In this document: piece by piece, positions 1-35,824 of the stretch
Position numbering within the stretch: the stretch's first letter is position 1
Layout of the letters: each line of letters opens with the position of its first letter
Assembly: GCF_030506325.1 (NCBI RefSeq)
Contig: NZ_CP120683.1
Coordinates: 2,170,001 to 2,234,000 of the forward strand
Direction of reading: 5' to 3'
Origin: Tunicatimonas pelagia
GTDB taxonomy: Bacteria; Bacteroidota; Bacteroidia; Cytophagales; Cyclobacteriaceae
DNA: 64,000 nt
Made by a program: the position numbers and the translations under genes
Notes under the pieces: model-generated
What the model saw: the letters and a program-made list of their open reading frames with translations, nothing else
Database searches by the model: none
What the model was told of the DNA's origin: nothing

Positions 1-913
1 TGTGACCGTTTAGTTCGGGGATCACAGCTTGGGTAGGAACCATTAGTGCATCATCTTCCCGGTTAAGGGTTAAGCTGATGCGGGCAAATTGACCGGGTAA
101 CAACCGACGATCTTGATTGGGGCTGATGGCTCGCATTTTCAGGGTGCGGGTAGCGGGGTCAAGCATTGGATCGATAGCGTAGATTTTACCTAAGAAAATA
201 TCATCGGAAGCATCCGTGCGAAACTCAACTTCATCATCTACCTTTATATCGTTACTGTAGCGACCGGGCACTGAGAACTCTACCTTGGCGGGGTCAATGT
301 TAGAGAAAGTTGCAATAATTGTTTGGGGGGAAATATAACTGCCCGTACTCACGTAGCGCAGACCAATAACGCCATCGAAGGGGGCGCGAATCTGAGATCG
401 ATCAATTTGAGCTTCCAAAACCTTAATATCAGCGGCCGATGTATTTAACTCTGTAAGTGCTTGGTCGTATTCCTCTTGGCTAATTGCTTCTTTCTCCAGC
501 AGTAGGCGCTGGCGGTACTCCATATCTTCGCGTAATTTCCGAGTATACTTGAGTTTCTCAAGCTGAGCTCTTAGCTCTTCGTCATTAATAGTAACCAGTA
601 GTGCCCCTCGTTTTACTTCTTGCCCTTCCTGAAAATGGATACCCGTGACTTTTCCAGATATTTCACTACGGATTTCTAGAGACTCATTGGCTAATACTGC
701 CCCGGTAACCTGAATCTGATCGCTGAGCCGCTTGGGTTCTACCACCACTGCATTTACTGGAACAGCCTTGACCGTGCCGGGAGCTGAAGCCGCGACCGCA
801 GTAGCGTTGGTACCGCTATCTTCACTAAAAATATCGAGTTTCGGTAATGCAACCAAAAAAGCAATTACAAGTACGATAACTACCGTGAGGATAGTCTTAA
901 CCTTTGGATTCAT
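1..913 (-). CDS. Efflux RND transporter periplasmic adaptor subunit (HlyD/MFP family), 3' end outside window
   Basis: From an ATG at 913 the frame stays open to the left edge, giving about 304 residues, so the C-terminus is missing. A single N-terminal membrane segment (about residues 5-25) is followed by a low-complexity linker. Two lipoyl half-motifs (SGKVTGIHFQEGQEVKRG and later APFDGVIGLRYVSTG) flank a short alpha-hairpin rich in Arg, Glu and Gln, and a beta-barrel region follows. This is the domain order of membrane-fusion proteins that bridge an inner-membrane RND pump and an outer-membrane channel. Transcription runs leftwards, so the pump gene would be expected beyond the window. The substrate cannot be told. 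Confidence 0.9.
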   Translation of the reverse strand, partial: MNPKVKTILTVVIVLVIAFLVALPKLDIFSEDSGTNATAVAASAPGTVKAVPVNAVVVEPKRLSDQIQVTGAVLANESLEIRSEISGKVTGIHFQEGQEVKRGALLVTINDEELRAQLEKLKYTRKLREDMEYRQRLLLEKEAISQEEYDQALTELNTSAADIKVLEAQIDRSQIRAPFDGVIGLRYVSTGSYISPQTIIATFSNIDPAKVEFSVPGRYSNDIKVDDEVEFRTDASDDIFLGKIYAIDPMLDPATRTLKMRAISPNQDRRLLPGQFARISLTLNREDDALMVPTQAVIPELNGH

Positions 914-29403: not shown

Positions 29404-30150
29404 TTATAAATCAGCATCTACCACTAAGTGCGGAACAGTGGATAAATCCCAATCAATTACTAAACCTTGAGCCAGACTTTCCGCCACTTGTTTTCCGTAA
29501 AGATACTCGCAAAGATAGAGGGCGGCTTCAAAGGATTTGGCTCCTCCCGCCGAGGTGATGAATTTACCGTCGTGTACAAAAAGCACATTTTCGTGTACTT
29601 CCAGTTGAGGGAACATCTGCCGGTAAGCATCAACATCGCTCGGAAATGTGGTGGAAGCATGACCTTCCAAAATTCCGGTTTTGGCCAGTACAAATGCTCC
29701 GTCGCAATGAGAAGTAACGAATTGGGCGTTTTCAGATGTTTTACGCACAAAATTCAGCATAGCTTCATCTTCCAAATCAGTATCCAGATGATGCTCGGCA
29801 CTGGGCACGACCAGAATATCAATGGGAGGAATGTCACCTTCAAGATAATTATAATCTGGCAGAATCCGCATTCCTTCAAAGGTGGTGATTACTTCGGTGG
29901 TATTGGCGACTGTAAATACCCGCATGGGTTTAATGCCCTCGCGGAAAATGGTATGCTGGAAAATATCGTAAGGTGCAGTCAGCTCGGTATTGTACACTCC
30001 ATCCATAATTAATAAAGCCACATTGTAAGCTTCCGGTGAACTGTCTTTCGGGTCAGGAGTATTTTCAGCGATGGCAGGCTGAGTCGGACCACAAGCTACG
30101 CTGTATAGAATAAGTATGAATATGCAAAGGTTGTAAATGAAAGTTTCCAT
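29404..30150 (-). CDS. DJ-1/PfpI family lipoprotein (class I glutamine-amidotransferase-like)
   Basis: The 248-residue protein has a lipoprotein signal (YSVACG) and then a DJ-1/PfpI fold: NVALLIMDGVYNTELTAPYD with the conserved Glu, and the nucleophile elbow VTSHCDGAFVLAKTG. The cytoplasmic relatives regulate transcription or act as isonitrile hydratases or glyoxalases, but this one appears to be exported and lipid-anchored, which is less common. Activity is unknown. Confidence 0.85.
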   Translation of the reverse strand: METFIYNLCIFILILYSVACGPTQPAIAENTPDPKDSSPEAYNVALLIMDGVYNTELTAPYDIFQHTIFREGIKPMRVFTVANTTEVITTFEGMRILPDYNYLEGDIPPIDILVVPSAEHHLDTDLEDEAMLNFVRKTSENAQFVTSHCDGAFVLAKTGILEGHASTTFPSDVDAYRQMFPQLEVHENVLFVHDGKFITSAGGAKSFEAALYLCEYLYGKQVAESLAQGLVIDWDLSTVPHLVVDADL

Positions 30151-30233: not shown

Positions 30234-30947
30234 TTATGAAGCTCCGTAGGCCGAACTAAAGAATACTTTCAGCTTATAAATATCTCGACCGGATAGTTCT
30301 AGCCCTGAGCACACCCTTATCACATCAGGAAGTACATTGAATAATTGTTCTAACGCATTATTTTCTCCAGTCACCATACTGTAAAAACTTGCACCATCTA
30401 TTATTCTTATCTTTTCGTTTTCAGGTAACTTGGCTCCCGTTTTACCATCGGACGGAGTGAATGGCTTGTTGAACCTCTCAGGCTTTTTTGGAATAATAGT
30501 AACATAATAAGCGGTGTAATCGCGGTAGCGGCTCGCTTTTGGCATTACCTGACTTTCCATTGATTTGTATAGGTCAGAAAGATTGGAGCCTTTCACTGTA
30601 TTATGTTTATTTTTTATCTCAGCTAATATTTTCCGATCATCAGACAAAAGATCCATCACATTTCCGGTCTTTAAATTCTCCCACCCTACTACATACCCTA
30701 AAATGGTCTGATGAAATTCTCCAATATGATTCTGCAGGGTTTTCTGGGATTGTCGGGCATACTCTCCTAACACCCACTTGTCATAATCAGTATTGAATCC
30801 AGCAATTTGGAAGATGGCTGAGAAAGGATCGATGACATTTTTGTTAAAACTTGTCCGGGCTTTGTCTTGTGTAATTTGAGCAACTGTAAGTAACTGCTGT
30901 ACGCTCGTTTGTAAATCTTGATCGCTGATCCAAGTCAGGTACGCCAT
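30234..30947 (-). CDS. Type II restriction endonuclease, Eco47II-like
   Basis: The 237-residue protein has the PD-(D/E)XK core in MDLLSDDRKILAEIKNKHNT (Asp, then Glu-X-Lys), followed by GSNLSDLYKSM and a C-terminal helical part. This resembles the Eco47II/Sau96I group that cuts GGNCC, but specificity is inferred only. It follows its methyltransferase gene by 30 bp on the same strand, so expression order is methyltransferase first. Confidence 0.8.
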   Translation of the reverse strand: MAYLTWISDQDLQTSVQQLLTVAQITQDKARTSFNKNVIDPFSAIFQIAGFNTDYDKWVLGEYARQSQKTLQNHIGEFHQTILGYVVGWENLKTGNVMDLLSDDRKILAEIKNKHNTVKGSNLSDLYKSMESQVMPKASRYRDYTAYYVTIIPKKPERFNKPFTPSDGKTGAKLPENEKIRIIDGASFYSMVTGENNALEQLFNVLPDVIRVCSGLELSGRDIYKLKVFFSSAYGAS

Positions 30948-30977
30948 ACATTTTATTGTAAAATATTTGCTCTAAAA

Positions 30978-32255
30978 CTACTCAAAAGCCAGTTCCATCT
31001 GATCAAAATTGGCTGCTTTATCTTTTATGCCATACTCTTGGTAAACTTTATTTAAGAATTCAACAACAGAGTAACCTAACTCCCTTCCCAGATTTACGGG
31101 CACAGCATTCCCAATTTGTTTATACTGATTGCTTACCGAACCAGCAAATTTCCACTCATCAGGGAAGGTTTGTATTCGGGCATATTCCCTGACCGTAAAT
31201 GGTCTGGTTTCATCAGGATGGCATCTTTCCGTTTGCTTTTGTGCCGGACTACAAGTAAGAGTTAACGACGGTTCGTCCCAACTTATTCTTCTGGCCATTC
31301 CCGTTTTTCCCCCACCCAGATAAAAGCTCTTTTGCATATACTCTTTCTGAAGGTCTAAAGGGAGGTCACGCCAATAGCCACCAGGAGGTACTAAGTCTAA
31401 AATCTCTTTCTTTCTTTTTGGGTAGGCAGAGCCTTCTGATTTGGGAACATCAGTGGAAAATAACTCCCCAGCCTTTAGGGCGTCTGATAAGTTATATATT
31501 TTCTTGTGCGGTCTAGGAAACTCAAACGCTATATCAATATCTTTTCTAATCCCAATCAGGATTAATCGCTCCCGTTTTTGGGGTACTTGATAAAATATTG
31601 CTTTAAGTATTCGCGGCTCAAGAGGTCGGTAACCAATTTCATCCAAAACTGACTTCATGCCTTCTATCGTCCGCCCATTATCATGATTTAACAGGCCACG
31701 GACGTTTTCGCCCACACAAATTAAAGGTTTAGTTTCATTGACTGCCCGGGCAAATTCATAGAATAGCGTGCCCCGAGCATCGTTAAAACCTAGCTTTTTT
31801 CCGGCGTAGCTAAATGCCTGACAAGGGAAACCACCAGTTACTACGTCAACCTTCCCAGCATAGCGGGCAAAATCGACGTTTTTAATATCATCCTCAATAA
31901 CCCTCCACTTTGGTCGGTTTATTCTGAGAGTTTCAGCCGCCCAATGGTCAATTTCATTAAGAGCAACACATTTTAGCCCAGCTTTTTCTAAGCCAATAGC
32001 TAATCCTCCTGCCCCAGCAAATAGTTCTAATACTGAATAATTATGCTTAGGCTGGGTGAAGTTGTGGGTATCTGAGGAGCCAAATAAGGAGTTTAACTCC
32101 TCAAAAACTCCGAGTTGTTCCTTTCGATAAACACGATAGTTACTCATCGGCTCCCGCATGGCTGGCAGCTTACCATCTCTGTCCCATCGCCGTAGTGTCT
32201 CTTTACTTTTTCCTAGTAGGTCGGCAACTTCCGTAATGGTGTAGTACTCTTTCAT
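30978..32255 (-). CDS. DNA (cytosine-5) methyltransferase with N-terminal MerR-type HTH
   Basis: The 425-residue protein has a MerR/excisionase-like HTH at residues 1-50 (YTITEVADLLGKSKETLRRW), a short linker, then a full C5 methyltransferase. Motif I is LELFAGAGGLAIGLE, the catalytic GGFPCQAFSYAG has Cys145, motif VI is GENVRGL, motif VIII is QKRERLILIGI and motif X is QIGNAVPVNLG. It protects the host from the adjacent nuclease. The extra HTH and the inverted repeat at 32267-32293 suggest that it represses its own operon. Confidence 0.95.
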   Translation of the reverse strand: MKEYYTITEVADLLGKSKETLRRWDRDGKLPAMREPMSNYRVYRKEQLGVFEELNSLFGSSDTHNFTQPKHNYSVLELFAGAGGLAIGLEKAGLKCVALNEIDHWAAETLRINRPKWRVIEDDIKNVDFARYAGKVDVVTGGFPCQAFSYAGKKLGFNDARGTLFYEFARAVNETKPLICVGENVRGLLNHDNGRTIEGMKSVLDEIGYRPLEPRILKAIFYQVPQKRERLILIGIRKDIDIAFEFPRPHKKIYNLSDALKAGELFSTDVPKSEGSAYPKRKKEILDLVPPGGYWRDLPLDLQKEYMQKSFYLGGGKTGMARRISWDEPSLTLTCSPAQKQTERCHPDETRPFTVREYARIQTFPDEWKFAGSVSNQYKQIGNAVPVNLGRELGYSVVEFLNKVYQEYGIKDKAANFDQMELAFE

Positions 32256-32300: not shown

Positions 32301-33758
32301 TTATTTCTCTTGAATCTCATTGATCGTTTGTACGATTTGAGACGCCAATCGTCGCTGATTCTTTTCGGACTCTAAAAAGGCTGACTCCTGAGGGTTAGAC
32401 AGAAAACCTAAGTTAAGTAGCACCGATGGGCATGGAGTATTTTTCAGCACGAGAAAATCAGCTTGTTTCACTGCGCTTTTTCCAGCTTTGGTGAGCGTGA
32501 TGTTTTGAATAAACTGCTGGCTATATTTTTCTGACAGGTCACTCTGAGCATTTTGCGTCGAATAATAAGCCTCTAAACCCTGTTGTGCTTCGTCATCGTG
32601 CTGATTGATGTGCAGTGAGAGAAACAAATCGGCATTACTCTGATTAGCCACTTCCACCCGGTCGGCTAAAGAAATAGCATTGTCGCCTTCGCGGGTGTAA
32701 ATTAACCGAACCGAAGAAGTTGAAACCAGTTCATCCATCGCTTGGGCAATCGCTAATACTACATCTTTTTCTTCTAGTTGCCCATTGGTAGTTCCAGCAT
32801 CTGCCCCACCGTGCCCAGCATCAATTACTACGGTAAATACCGAGCCGTCTGGATAGTACGTCGATTGATTTAACTGAGCCGTGAAGGCAGTCATTACGAA
32901 TAAGCCTACTGCCGCTAGTGCGGTAAATCCTAGCTTACTGGCGAAAGCCACGGGGGAAGAAACAGTGCGTTGCATCATAATAATTCGGTGTTTAGTTAAA
33001 GAATAATGAAAACCACTACCCAGATGGGGGTAAGAGCGATGGTGCATAAAATCTAATAATGTATGACTATAAGCCGAAGCCTCAGATGTCTGGCTGATTA
33101 CGTAGTTATCAGCGCAAAACTCATGATTAGCCACTAGTGCCCGACGATACGCCCACAGCAGCGGATGAAACCAGCCGAAAATCAAGACTAGCTCCATGAA
33201 TAAAATATCTAGCGTATGCCTGTGACGAACGTGAAGCGATTCGTGCCGAATAATATCTTGGGGAATACCGCCTTGTAAATATTCATCCTGGTTTGCAACG
33301 ACATAACGACCGAAACTAAACGGAGCTATGGGTTCTTTCACTAAGCGAAGTAGTGTTTCGCCGTTAGTATGGTGCTCTGCATTTGCCAGTAAGCGGTACA
33401 TTGCCCAAAGATTTTTAGTAAAGCGAAAAGTCATTCCCAGCACGCCGATTCCGTAAACCAAGTACAGTAGATAAGCTAAGCTGAACTCAGACGACTGGAC
33501 GGAGGAAGATGCGCCAGTGTTTTCTGTAACTGCCGGAAACTCTAAAGCTTTGGCAGTAAACTGAAGGTGGCTATCGTCAAAATAAGTGGCTTGAAATAAA
33601 TCTGGTAGCGCAGCCAACGGAATAAGTAGCGAGAAAATGATTGACCCCAGCAAATAGAACCGATTAAACAGAAACCACTTATCCTTTTGGAAGAAAAGAT
33701 GGTAGCAACCCAGTAGCAACGCCAGGCTGATGGTGGCTTTAAGTAAGTAAAAAATCAT
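32301..33758 (-). CDS. BlaR1-like M56 metalloprotease fused to an amidase_3-like ectodomain
   Basis: 485 residues. Residues 1-290 are an M56 (BlaR1/MecR1) module with about five membrane segments and the zinc motif HESLH (172-176), then NHEFCADNYV. A final membrane segment (about 275-292) is followed by an N-acetylmuramoyl-L-alanine amidase_3-type domain (305-485): VVIDAGHGGADAG with His316, Glu330 in EEKDVVLAI, and SLHIN with His383. The expected catalytic Glu of the VE(I/L)GFLSN motif is Asn449 (SVLLNLGFLSN). So the ectodomain may bind peptidoglycan without cutting it. The start overlaps the blaI-like stop by 4 bp. Confidence 0.88.
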   Translation of the reverse strand: MIFYLLKATISLALLLGCYHLFFQKDKWFLFNRFYLLGSIIFSLLIPLAALPDLFQATYFDDSHLQFTAKALEFPAVTENTGASSSVQSSEFSLAYLLYLVYGIGVLGMTFRFTKNLWAMYRLLANAEHHTNGETLLRLVKEPIAPFSFGRYVVANQDEYLQGGIPQDIIRHESLHVRHRHTLDILFMELVLIFGWFHPLLWAYRRALVANHEFCADNYVISQTSEASAYSHTLLDFMHHRSYPHLGSGFHYSLTKHRIIMMQRTVSSPVAFASKLGFTALAAVGLFVMTAFTAQLNQSTYYPDGSVFTVVIDAGHGGADAGTTNGQLEEKDVVLAIAQAMDELVSTSSVRLIYTREGDNAISLADRVEVANQSNADLFLSLHINQHDDEAQQGLEAYYSTQNAQSDLSEKYSQQFIQNITLTKAGKSAVKQADFLVLKNTPCPSVLLNLGFLSNPQESAFLESEKNQRRLASQIVQTINEIQEK

Positions 33759-34135
33759 TGTTTCTTCTTTTCCTCAATTTGTTCCTGAATAATACCCCGT
33801 AGCTCTTCTAATTCCTCGAGCGACAAATCAGCTTTAGCGGTGAAGAAGGAAGCAAACTGAGCCGGAGAATTATTGAAGAAGTTCTGAACGATCTGGTTGA
33901 AGTGGCTCTTCATATATTCTCCCTTCTTCAATTTCGGGAAGTACTCTCGCACCTTACCCCGCTGGATAAATCCTACCAATTCCTTATTGATCATGCGGGT
34001 AAGTAAAGTAGCAATAGTGGTGTAGGCGGGTTTAGGCTCAGGAAATGCCTCTACCAGATCTTTCATATAGGCCTTCTCCAGCTTCCAGAGGTAGTTCATC
34101 AGTTGCTCTTCGGCTTTGGTTAGTTTTTTCATCAT
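33755..34135 (-). CDS. BlaI/MecI/CopY-family transcriptional repressor
   Basis: About 126 residues from the ATG at 34135; a TTG four codons upstream is in frame but less likely. The N-terminal winged helix (LTKAEEQLMNYLWKLEKAYM and PAYTTIATLLTRMINKELV) and the helical dimerisation tail (LSLEELEELRGIIQEQIEE) fit BlaI. Such repressors are cleaved when a BlaR1-type M56 sensor is activated. Its gene overlaps the M56 gene by 4 bp, and its likely operator lies at 35440-35459. Confidence 0.95.
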   Translation of the reverse strand: MMKKLTKAEEQLMNYLWKLEKAYMKDLVEAFPEPKPAYTTIATLLTRMINKELVGFIQRGKVREYFPKLKKGEYMKSHFNQIVQNFFNNSPAQFASFFTAKADLSLEELEELRGIIQEQIEEKKKQ

Positions 34136-34163
34136 AAACTCATTCAAAATTTTAGTGCTGCTT

Positions 34164-35417
34164 TTACTGAAATGGTTGATAGGTAAGTTTGCGCCATAGC
34201 TTTTCCAACGGGCCTTGAGCGAATTTTCTCATCCAAAACCAACTGATACTGAGTTGAAGCAGCCAAATGATTATTACAAACAGTAGTAGTTCAGCGCGTG
34301 AATACTGATTATACTTTCCCAGTCCATAGCCGTAGAAGATTAGCCCGCAAATAATGCTTTGCAGTATATAGTTGCTGAGAGCCATTCGTCCGACATAGGA
34401 AATAAGGTTTGCTGCAAATCTCTTCAAATACTTTTGATACAAACCATTGAGTAACAGAATATACGCTAGCCCTAAAGTCTCTTTGGGAAAAGTAAATAAC
34501 CAGCTCTGCCCTAGACTTTTCACGGGCTCGAAATACTCAAATGTCCAGTGATAGTACCGGAAATAATTCATCGTTAGTGCAGCAGCCAAAATAACTAGCG
34601 TAATGGGCCAGTAATATTTTACCGAGCGATAATCGTGAAACACGCCCAATTTGTACAGTATTATTCCAAGGACCATCATCAGGAGCGTGCGGAACAGTAT
34701 GCCCTGGTAAAAGACAGCACCTTTATGGACTTTCGTGTGTTCGGCATTGGCTAGCCAGCTTTGATAAAGCGTCGTTCGCGGTATATCTATATTAGAACGG
34801 TCTGCCTCACCGGGCTGAGTTCTTTTCTCCCAGATTTTTATTCTTTTCTGATCTTCTTCAGTTCGTTCTTCCTCAGCTAACTCAACTGCCTGGGTATATT
34901 GATGGAATTGTTCTTTCGTCTTACTCGCACGTTTGTAGGAGTTGTAAAGCAGTATTCCAGCAAATAAGAACACCACCATTACGAGCTGATTTACCTTAAA
35001 TGAACGAAGAGGGAACAGAAAAAAACCGCAGGCAGCGTAGTGATACAAAACGTCACCGTTCCAGATAAGATAAGCGTGAGCCAAGCCAAACAAAAATAGC
35101 CAAAGTAGCCGTCGGGCATAAATATCCATTGCCTTCAACCCCAGATCTTTACGCTCCATTCTTTCTAAGAAAACATAGAAGCCCACTCCAAACAGTAAGG
35201 TAAACATACTAAAGAATTTACCTTGGGCTAGAAAGAATACCCAAAAACGAACGAGATGGTCAGTCTCACTAGCGAAACCATATTTGTATGGGTTCCAAGG
35301 GTCGGGATAGGAAAAAGACTCAATGTTAATGATCAAGATGCCTAGCAACGCAATCCCTCGTAAAAAGTCAAGGGAATTAATTCTTTCAGATGGTGAAGTA
35401 GGCTTTAGCACGGACAA
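34164..35417 (-). CDS. DUF418 domain-containing membrane protein
   Basis: The 417-residue multi-pass protein starts with TTG (35417) or GTG (35411), as no ATG is in frame. The DUF418 start pattern (RINSLDFLRGIALLGILIINI) and C-terminal DUF418 core (SYVGRMALSNYILQSIICGL, then ELLLFVIIIWLLQLSISWFW) are clear. DUF418 proteins are predicted acyltransferase-like or transport-related membrane proteins with no proven role. It is the first gene of the unit with the BlaI-like repressor and M56 sensor, so it may be the regulated output. Confidence 0.88.
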   Translation of the reverse strand: MSVLKPTSPSERINSLDFLRGIALLGILIINIESFSYPDPWNPYKYGFASETDHLVRFWVFFLAQGKFFSMFTLLFGVGFYVFLERMERKDLGLKAMDIYARRLLWLFLFGLAHAYLIWNGDVLYHYAACGFFLFPLRSFKVNQLVMVVFLFAGILLYNSYKRASKTKEQFHQYTQAVELAEEERTEEDQKRIKIWEKRTQPGEADRSNIDIPRTTLYQSWLANAEHTKVHKGAVFYQGILFRTLLMMVLGIILYKLGVFHDYRSVKYYWPITLVILAAALTMNYFRYYHWTFEYFEPVKSLGQSWLFTFPKETLGLAYILLLNGLYQKYLKRFAANLISYVGRMALSNYILQSIICGLIFYGYGLGKYNQYSRAELLLFVIIIWLLQLSISWFWMRKFAQGPLEKLWRKLTYQPFQ

Positions 35418-35824
35418 TATTTACTACCAATAAAGTATAATTACTACAAATGTAGTAATAAAAATTACTTATCAAAATACTGGCTGCTACTCAAGCGAGA
35501 TTCTTAGCAATTTGCTAACCGTACTTTACAATATAGCAATCACTGTCTGCCCCCATCTATTGTTATATCTTTATCTCTCTAGGACGTTTTTACCTATCGG
35601 TAGATCACTGATAGTCAATTTCTGTTTTTATCTTAATGTAGATGAGCTAAATAAGATTATGCGATTATTATAGTATATTGATACCCCTAGCTTTATATCT
35701 TCGCAAGTAGTTTTATATTGAATAGAAAATACTTTATAAGTATTATTAACTATTTTAAATAATTTTTTGTCTTTTTATCATATTAAACTTAATTTTATAT
35801 GATATTTTTTATAATAACAATATT
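35418..35824. other. AT-rich leader between the BlaI operon and the polysaccharide operon
   Basis: About 400 bp, very rich in A and T towards the right. Besides the operator it has small dyads: CTATCGGT/ACTGATAG (35594-35614), AATACTT-TAT-AAGTATT (35728-35744), and ATCATAT...ATATGAT near 35778-35803. No coding frame is supported. It must hold the promoter of the rightward polysaccharide operon. I found no long inverted pair that would mark an invertible promoter. Confidence 0.5.
35440..35459 (-). promoter_or_regulatory. BlaI/MecI-type operator palindrome
   Basis: ATTACTACAAATGTAGTAAT has perfect 9-bp arms around AA and contains the BlaI/MecI core TACA-N2-TGTA. It is 23 bp upstream of the DUF418 start, so it is well placed to repress the whole operon. 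A degenerate second site (TTACTACC...GTA) lies at 35421-35437. Confidence 0.75.

What the first reader, a model, noticed from the sequence alone, without database searches (positions are those of the whole stretch)
32301..35459. BlaR1-like protease with an amidase-like ectodomain that has lost its catalytic Glu, in a BlaI-controlled operon
Seen: an M56 protease module (HESLH) is fused after its last membrane segment to an amidase_3-type domain that keeps His316, Glu330 and His383 but has Asn449 where the family has the catalytic Glu (SVLLNLGFLSN). The codon is AAC. Beside it are a BlaI-type repressor and a perfect TACA-N2-TGTA palindrome. Known: BlaR1/MecR1 sense beta-lactams with a C-terminal penicillin-binding ectodomain and then trigger BlaI loss. 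Inferred: here a dead amidase domain senses peptidoglycan or muropeptides and switches on the DUF418 membrane protein.
Basis: partly seen in the sequence, partly recalled or inferred. Interest (0 to 1): 0.78.

Follow-up and report, generated by a model that had tools for sequence, protein, structure and literature searches.

The report
BlaR1-type receptor with disabled amidase ectodomain
A bacterial membrane receptor of the kind that switches on penicillin resistance carries, instead of a penicillin sensor, a cell-wall-cutting enzyme domain that lacks its catalytic glutamate, and so probably reads the state of the cell wall instead of cutting it.

Summary
Gene 32301-33758(-) encodes a Peptidase_M56 (BlaR1-type) module followed by an Amidase_3 ectodomain (E 1.2e-43). 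Zinc ligands His316, Glu330 and His383 are kept; the catalytic Glu is Asn449. blaI overlaps it and DUF418 leads the operon. The operator is a 20-bp perfect palindrome containing a Bacteroidota-type -7 box; its core occurs perfectly once in the 7.29-Mb genome.

I found 18 further M56-Amidase_3 fusions (a lower bound). All 19 keep the zinc ligands and HExxH; 12 keep the Glu, 7 do not (5 Asn, 1 Asp, 1 Ile), and those 7 are not one clade. Stand-alone amidases of the same genomes have Glu in 27 of the 28 that align there. The amidase domain has dN/dS 0.06-0.09 and models confidently as the amidase fold.

Best reading: a BlaR1-like receptor whose ectodomain binds peptidoglycan or an amidase partner, triggering BlaI cleavage and derepression of its operon, here with a predicted transmembrane acyltransferase (DUF418). 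Ligand, lack of catalysis and BlaI cleavage are inferred. The Glu-less amidase is a lineage trait, not the family rule, and DUF418 was found in only 4 of 19 loci. New variant of a known kind.

The parts
32301..33758 (-). M56-Amidase_3 fusion gene (BlaR1-like receptor with pseudo-amidase ectodomain), 485 aa
   Evidence: orthologues at 87% and 76% identity and 16 more distant fusions
32304..32840 (-). Amidase_3 ectodomain, residues 307-485; zinc ligands H316, E330, H383
   Evidence: Pfam 149.7 bits; AlphaFold2 pLDDT 96.2; Foldseek best hit CwlV 1jwq E 7.7e-18; dN/dS 0.06-0.09
32412..32414 (-). Asn449 codon AAC at the position of the Amidase_3 catalytic Glu
33231..33245 (-). HESLH, M56 metalloprotease zinc motif (residues 172-176); HExxH in 19 of 19 fusions
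33755..34132 (-). BlaI/MecI-type repressor (Penicillinase_R), 125 aa; overlaps the fusion start by ATGA; Phe97 aligns with the P1' Phe of the S. aureus BlaI cleavage site
34164..35417 (-). DUF418 (YeiB-type) membrane protein, TTG start, predicted transmembrane acyltransferase; DxxR-x10-N read by eye near its N-terminus
   Evidence: superfamily assignment from PMC12423673
35440..35459 (.). BlaI-type operator, 20-bp perfect palindrome ATTACTACA-AA-TGTAGTAAT
35447..35454 (-). -7 box TACATTTG (Bacteroidota consensus TAnnTTTG, recalled) inside the operator
35473..35475 (-). -33 TTG element, 18 bases upstream of the -7 box
35422..35437 (.). possible second, degenerate operator dyad (3 mismatches) between the operator and the DUF418 start
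   Evidence: weak: 10 such sites in the window, 2.6 expected

Best explanation
A BlaR1-type receptor-protease with a new ectodomain. At rest, BlaI binds the 20-bp operator over the -7 box and represses DUF418-blaI-receptor. The amidase-fold ectodomain in the periplasm keeps the zinc site and fold but has Asn for the catalytic Glu, so it binds peptidoglycan stem peptides or muropeptides (or a protein partner of amidases) with little or no turnover. Occupancy shifts the transmembrane helices and opens the cytosolic M56 protease, which cuts BlaI next to its conserved Phe, as S. aureus BlaR1 does. The operon is derepressed, making more receptor, more BlaI (to reset) and a DUF418 transmembrane acyltransferase that may acylate an envelope glycan. 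Shown by sequence: architecture, residue loss with retained ligands, operator and promoter overlap, conserved linkage, purifying selection, amidase fold. Inferred: ligand, lack of catalysis, BlaI cleavage, induction, DUF418 substrate.
For: M56 and Amidase_3 in one chain with five hydrophobic segments, the last at 269-297 just before the ectodomain; BlaR1 has N-out, C-out topology, an extramembranal C-terminal sensor, and cuts BlaI directly (passages of PMC9834060). HExxH and the zinc ligands in 19 of 19 fusions; position 449 non-Glu in 7 of 19, against Glu in 27 of 28 aligned stand-alone amidases of the same genomes and 48 of 48 amidases of viral contigs. Amidase-domain dN/dS 0.06-0.09, lower than the other three parts of the protein in all three pairs. 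BlaI adjacent in 18 of 19; Phe at the P1' position in 16 of 18 BlaI proteins. Operator core perfect at one place in the genome and found upstream of relatives' operons. Ectodomain model pLDDT 96.2, matching zinc amidases.
Against: Twelve of 19 fusions keep the Glu, including L015, sister to the Asn-bearing L014, so catalysis may matter in much of the family. No ligand evidence. The full-length model failed (pLDDT 36.7), so coupling between domains was not examined. DUF418 was not found beside the fusion in 15 of 19 loci. The protein scores low against BlaR1-specific models (29 bits, cut-off 400). The BlaI P1 residue is Phe, not Asn as in S. aureus. Four of 18 operons lack a good operator match.
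Confidence: 0.6

Rival explanations
1. Decoy for amidase activators: the pseudo-amidase domain binds an EnvC- or ActH/GerS-like activator protein and so reads divisome or amidase status, not peptidoglycan itself.
For: The closest solved folds include Amidase_3 enzymes crystallised with partner proteins: AmiB-EnvC (8c0j), LytH-ActH (7tj4), CwlD-GerS (7rag). A Glu-less copy fits a protein-binding role.
Against: Zinc ligands are kept in 19 of 19 fusions; a pure protein-binding decoy would not obviously need them. None of the ten neighbouring proteins scanned with Pfam is of an activator type; the other neighbours were not scanned.
Confidence: 0.15
2. Active or slow amidase: Asn449 still allows hydrolysis, and the protein is a membrane-anchored amidase whose level is set by its own M56-BlaI circuit.
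For: Zinc site intact; 12 of 19 fusions keep the Glu; the fold is preserved.
Against: Glu in 48 of 48 viral-contig and 27 of 28 aligned stand-alone amidases; named as the catalytic residue in AmiP and water-linked to zinc in Rv3717 (passages). The genome has two other Amidase_3 proteins, both with Glu.
Confidence: 0.12
3. Product signalling: in Glu-bearing relatives the domain releases stem peptides whose cytoplasmic derivatives dissociate BlaI, as the gamma-D-Glu-diaminoacid dipeptide does for BlaI/MecI; the window lineage has lost this input.
For: A peptidoglycan dipeptide binds BlaI/MecI and destabilises its DNA complex (PMC3305447, abstract and Discussion); 12 of 19 fusions keep the Glu.
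Against: Does not explain why the Asn lineage keeps the ectodomain at dN/dS below 0.1.
Confidence: 0.07
4. Decaying domain: the amidase part is a non-functional remnant.
For: Only the loss of a catalytic residue.
Against: dN/dS 0.06-0.09, zinc ligands in 19 of 19, Asn kept through a synonymous change.
Confidence: 0.02

Closest known systems
BlaR1/MecR1 beta-lactam receptor-proteases (S. aureus BlaR1, 8exp)
   Same: M56 HExxH module, C-terminal ectodomain after the last membrane segment, gene next to BlaI, TACTACA/TGTAGTA-type operator (type recalled), Phe at the BlaI P1' position
   Different: Ectodomain is an Amidase_3 fold, not a penicillin-binding domain; DUF418, not a beta-lactamase or PBP2a, is in the operon; relatives are Flammeovirgaceae (Bacteroidota)
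Amidase_3 N-acetylmuramoyl-L-alanine amidases (CwlV 1jwq, AmiC2 5emi, AmiP 7b3n)
   Same: Fold and His-Glu-His zinc site
   Different: Asn for the catalytic Glu in the window; fused behind a membrane protease
CwlM, amidase-like regulator of mycobacterial wall synthesis (recalled; search listing only)
   Same: Amidase fold used for regulation (recalled)
   Different: Not a transmembrane receptor-protease and not linked to BlaI (recalled)
Animal PGRP receptors (recalled, no call)
   Same: A zinc amidase fold turned into a peptidoglycan receptor
   Different: Amidase_2 fold, different kingdom and signalling; recalled only
Other M56 proteins of this genome (TonB_C and POTRA ectodomains)
   Same: M56 with another C-terminal domain; a BlaI gene beside L004 and L007
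   Different: C-terminal domains are TonB_C (L003, L007) or POTRA (L004)

Membership tests
BlaR1/MecR1 receptor | Peptidase_M56 module with HExxH | tested here: met
   Pfam 41.8 bits over cut-off 31; HESLH, HExxH in 19 of 19
BlaR1/MecR1 receptor | C-terminal penicillin-binding sensor domain | tested here: not met
   Only amidase-type hits in the C-terminal part; NCBIfam blaR1_generic 29 bits, cut-off 400, over 140-243 only
BlaR1/MecR1 receptor | Adjacent BlaI/MecI repressor and BlaI-type operator | tested here: met
   BlaI at 18 of 19 fusion loci; operator
BlaR1/MecR1 receptor | Proteolysis of BlaI on induction | not testable with these tools
   Phe at the P1' position in 16 of 18; cleavage not shown
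Amidase_3 amidase | Amidase_3 fold | tested here: met
   Pfam E 1.2e-43; model pLDDT 96.2, Foldseek 1jwq E 7.7e-18
Amidase_3 amidase | His-Glu-His zinc ligands | tested here: met
   H316, E330, H383; 19 of 19 fusions
Amidase_3 amidase | Catalytic Glu | tested here: not met
   Asn449 in the window; 7 of 19 fusions lack Glu
Amidase_3 amidase | Amidase activity | not testable with these tools
   needs purified domain
BlaI/MecI repressor | Penicillinase_R domain | tested here: met
   92.2 bits, cut-off 22.6; MecI 1okr E 3.2e-8
TmAT superfamily (DUF418) | DUF418 domain and DxxR motif in the first helix | tested here: met
   131 bits, cut-off 23.6; D17-x2-R20-x10-N31, counted by eye from the TTG start; the paper notes an Asn further along helix 1 of HGSNAT (passage); the helix itself was not predicted
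TmAT superfamily (DUF418) | Acyl transfer across the membrane | not testable with these tools
   superfamily inference only

The most novel reading that the evidence does not exclude
Bacteroidota have repeatedly turned a membrane-anchored peptidoglycan amidase into a peptidoglycan receptor by losing the catalytic Glu while keeping the zinc site (a bacterial counterpart of PGRP receptors), wired it to repressor proteolysis, and in two lineages used it to induce a transmembrane acyltransferase, perhaps together with glmS, so that envelope building and modification answer directly to wall breakdown.
Probability: 0.3. Interest if true: 0.8.

Novelty: new variant of a known kind. Interest (0 to 1): 0.62.

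Why it matters
BlaR1 sensors are thought to descend from penicillin-interacting enzymes (recalled). This family shows the same receptor chassis carrying another wall enzyme, with Glu-bearing and Glu-less versions side by side in a small tree. The step from enzyme to receptor can therefore be tested by comparing natural homologues. It also offers a candidate direct peptidoglycan sensor and a regulatory context for DUF418, whose substrate is not known to me.

Tried and rejected
Full-length AlphaFold2 on three sequences failed (pLDDT 36.7) and was not used; the ectodomain alone, aligned with two orthologues and 48 viral-contig amidases, worked. A regex attempt to read the Glu column in stand-alone amidases was useless and was replaced by a profile alignment. 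'Asn defines the M56-amidase fusions' was rejected (12 of 19 have Glu). 'All non-Glu fusions share one loss' was rejected (p-AU 0.0001; the Asn carriers as one clade p-AU 0.0067), with the caution that L021 and L142 are long branches. 'DUF418 is the conserved output' was rejected (4 of 19). A NagX-like acyltransferase two ORFs downstream of a Glu-bearing fusion in L081 is suggestive only; in the ORF list of its sister L078 I saw no similar start (by eye). The Fisher test (7 of 19 against 1 of 28, p 0.0047; with fusion rows alone collapsed by genus, 5 of 14, p 0.011) ignores the tree and is only indicative. I first passed over the one-mismatch operator-like site at C1:5181830; on re-checking it lies about 200 bases upstream of glmS and is conserved, see the report; I keep it as a lead, found after the fact. 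Seven paper searches listed no title or abstract start that describes an M56-amidase fusion; the M56/BlaI word matches opened were false (catalogue numbers and author names).
Full report
What is there. On the minus strand the window holds DUF418 (34164-35417, TTG start), blaI (33755-34132) and a 485-aa fusion gene (32301-33758). There are 31 bases between the first two genes and the last two overlap by ATGA, so this reads as one operon. Pfam gives Penicillinase_R, DUF418 and, in the fusion, Peptidase_M56 (residues 120-261) and Amidase_3 (310-480). A hydropathy scan of the fusion finds segments at 1-23, 28-58, 91-113, 182-204 and 269-297, the last just before the amidase domain. S. aureus BlaR1 is N-out, C-out, with a C-terminal sensor outside and a protease facing the cytosol (passages of PMC9834060). 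By analogy the amidase domain is periplasmic.

The active site. HESLH is at 172-176; His316, Glu330 and His383 are the zinc ligands, and Asn449 stands where the four solved amidases printed have Glu. In AmiP, PMC9929850 names His17, Glu32 and His85 as zinc ligands and Glu145 as catalytic (passages); phmmer matches window 310-451 to AmiP chain 7b3n 11-147, so the ends of the stretch put Asn449 at Glu145 (inference; that alignment was not printed). In Rv3717 the passage seen names Glu176 as reaching zinc through a water. The ectodomain, modelled with two orthologues and 48 viral-contig amidases, has mean pLDDT 96.2, and its best solved matches are CwlV, AmiC2, a C. difficile 630 amidase and CwlD. 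I had no coordinates, so distances in the site were not measured.

The family. Searches of 196, 395, 390 and 395 genomes (handles G000-G1249, so 1,250 genomes with overlaps removed) gave 19 full-length fusions, the window's included: 17 plus L141 and L142. This is a lower bound: only the best candidates per genome were scored, the hit lists were truncated, and only fetched loci were checked. All 19 keep HExxH and the three zinc ligands. Position 449 is Glu in 12, Asn in 5 (three of them one genus), Asp in 1 and Ile in 1. The Asp and Ile rows are sisters (98/96). The Asn rows lie in a supported group of six (99/99) that also holds the Glu-bearing L015, sister of Asn-bearing L014 (99/98). The fewest changes between Glu and non-Glu are 3. 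Holding the seven non-Glu rows as one clade is rejected (p-AU 0.0001), as is holding the five Asn rows (p-AU 0.0067). So the Glu was lost more than once, or lost and regained; the tree cannot say which, and L021 and L142 are long branches.

Controls. The same 19 genomes have 50 Amidase_3 matches: the 19 fusions and 31 stand-alone. Of the 31, 27 have Glu, one has Arg (L204, which also has Arg at the column of one zinc His and is unaligned at the other) and three did not align at that column. Of 48 viral-contig amidases (of 80 fetched), 48 have Glu; they were fetched by patterns around the zinc histidines, so their His columns are no control, but the Glu column was not in the patterns. Loss is therefore commoner in the fusions (7 of 19 against 1 of 28; Fisher p 0.0047, or 0.011 with fusion rows collapsed by genus, neither corrected for the tree).

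Selection. Between the window gene and its two nearest orthologues the amidase domain has dN/dS 0.06 and 0.09, and 0.09 between those two, lower than each other part of the protein in every pair; dS in that domain is above 1 for the pairs with L009, so those ratios are rough. Asn449 is AAC in the window and AAT in both orthologues. The domain is constrained, not decaying.

Control of expression. The core TACTACANNTGTAGTA occurs perfectly at one place in the genome, as part of a 20-bp perfect dyad at 35440-35459. On the operon strand the dyad contains TACATTTG, which fits the Bacteroidota -7 box TAnnTTTG (recalled), with TTG 18 bases upstream. The same arrangement, with 18 or 19 bases, is present in L071, L072, L073 and L082, so in 5 of the 16 upstream regions scanned; a further promoter-like match in L078 puts the operator-like site in the spacer. 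BlaI on this dyad would cover the promoter. In 18 operons the best site has 0 mismatches in 8, 1 in 4, 2 in 2, 3 in 2, 4 in 1 and 6 in 1 (for L166 and L167 the whole stretch was scanned). BlaI is next to the fusion in 18 of 19. BlaR1 cuts S. aureus BlaI between Asn101 and a nearly invariant Phe102 (passages); the window BlaI aligns there with Phe96-Phe97, and the P1' position is Phe in 16 of 18 BlaI proteins, Leu in L084 and Met in L083.

Output. DUF418 lies beside the fusion in the window, L070, L071 and L079 (G161), all non-Glu at 449, and was not found in the fetched stretch of the other 15, the 12 Glu-bearing ones among them. But three of the four are one genus, and at L073, L075 and L085 the contig ends near the gene. 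The order differs in L079 (BlaI-fusion-DUF418), which suggests a separate gain. PMC12423673 (passages) places DUF418 in the TmAT superfamily of transmembrane acyltransferases; the window protein has DxxR-x10-N near its N-terminus. An envelope acyltransferase induced by wall damage would make sense but is untested.

A second possible target. The only one-mismatch copy of the operator core in the genome (C1:5181830) lies 204 bases upstream of the start of glmS, which makes glucosamine-6-phosphate for the wall (NCBIfam glmS 552.7 bits, cut-off 418). The TACA-N2-TGTA core is at the same distance (201-204 bases) upstream of glmS in two congeners, G071 and G155; G125's contig ends inside glmS. In the alignment of the three upstream regions 33% of columns are invariant, all eight core bases are invariant while the two central ones vary, and 3 of 311 windows reach that. 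This was found after the fact, such one-mismatch sites may occur by chance, the full core is not kept (1 mismatch in the window's genome, 2 in G071), the genome has seven BlaI genes, and G155 has no close copy of the fusion (best E 1.5e-24). So a BlaI-type site at glmS is likely, but its tie to this receptor is open.

Mechanism and doubt. I take the protein to be a BlaR1-type receptor whose amidase-fold ectodomain reads peptidoglycan state. The main rival is a decoy for amidase activator proteins, because several of the closest solved amidases are bound to partners. Kept zinc ligands favour a small-molecule or peptidoglycan ligand. In Glu-bearing relatives the domain may still cut, and its products could even reach BlaI, since a peptidoglycan dipeptide dissociates BlaI/MecI from DNA (PMC3305447, abstract and Discussion).

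Known or new. M56 receptors, BlaI operators and Amidase_3 are known. Seven full-text searches of the open-access library listed nothing on their fusion, which does not show that nothing exists. It is a new variant of a known kind: it fails the BlaR1 ectodomain test and the Amidase_3 catalytic-Glu test, but by anatomy works like a BlaR1.

Noticed in passing
G000 C1:5181830-5181845 (L094:1501): The one-mismatch operator core 204 bases upstream of glmS, with its TACA-N2-TGTA core conserved in two congeners: a possible BlaI-family target in wall precursor synthesis.
   Followed up: partly
window 30237-32255 (-): An Eco47II-type restriction endonuclease and a C5 cytosine methyltransferase with an N-terminal HTH_17/MerR domain sit directly downstream of the fusion. 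In L070 the DJ-1/PfpI gene follows the fusion without such a pair, so the pair looks like an insertion.
   Followed up: partly
window 29407-30150 (-): A DJ-1/PfpI-family protein with a signal-like N-terminus; a counterpart follows the fusion in L070, and a similar N-terminus follows it in L071 (by eye).
   Followed up: partly
L004:847-2328 (-) (G000 C1:233094 region): Another M56 protein of this genome carries two POTRA-repeat matches after the protease (PF07244, E 5.9e-27), which suggests a receptor tied to outer-membrane assembly; a BlaI gene lies beside it (C1:232076).
   Followed up: partly
L003, L007 (G000): Two further M56 proteins of this genome carry TonB_C domains: swapping of the C-terminal domain on the M56 chassis is a theme here.
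   Followed up: no
L081:6175-7302 (-): A relative of the NagX transmembrane glucosamine N-acetyltransferase (NCBIfam NF046061, 173.5 bits, under its cut-off 480) two ORFs downstream of a Glu-bearing fusion.
   Followed up: partly
L204 (G119): A stand-alone Amidase_3 match with Arg at the Glu column and at one zinc-His column, in the genome of Asn-bearing fusion L014: possibly a second pseudo-amidase.
   Followed up: no
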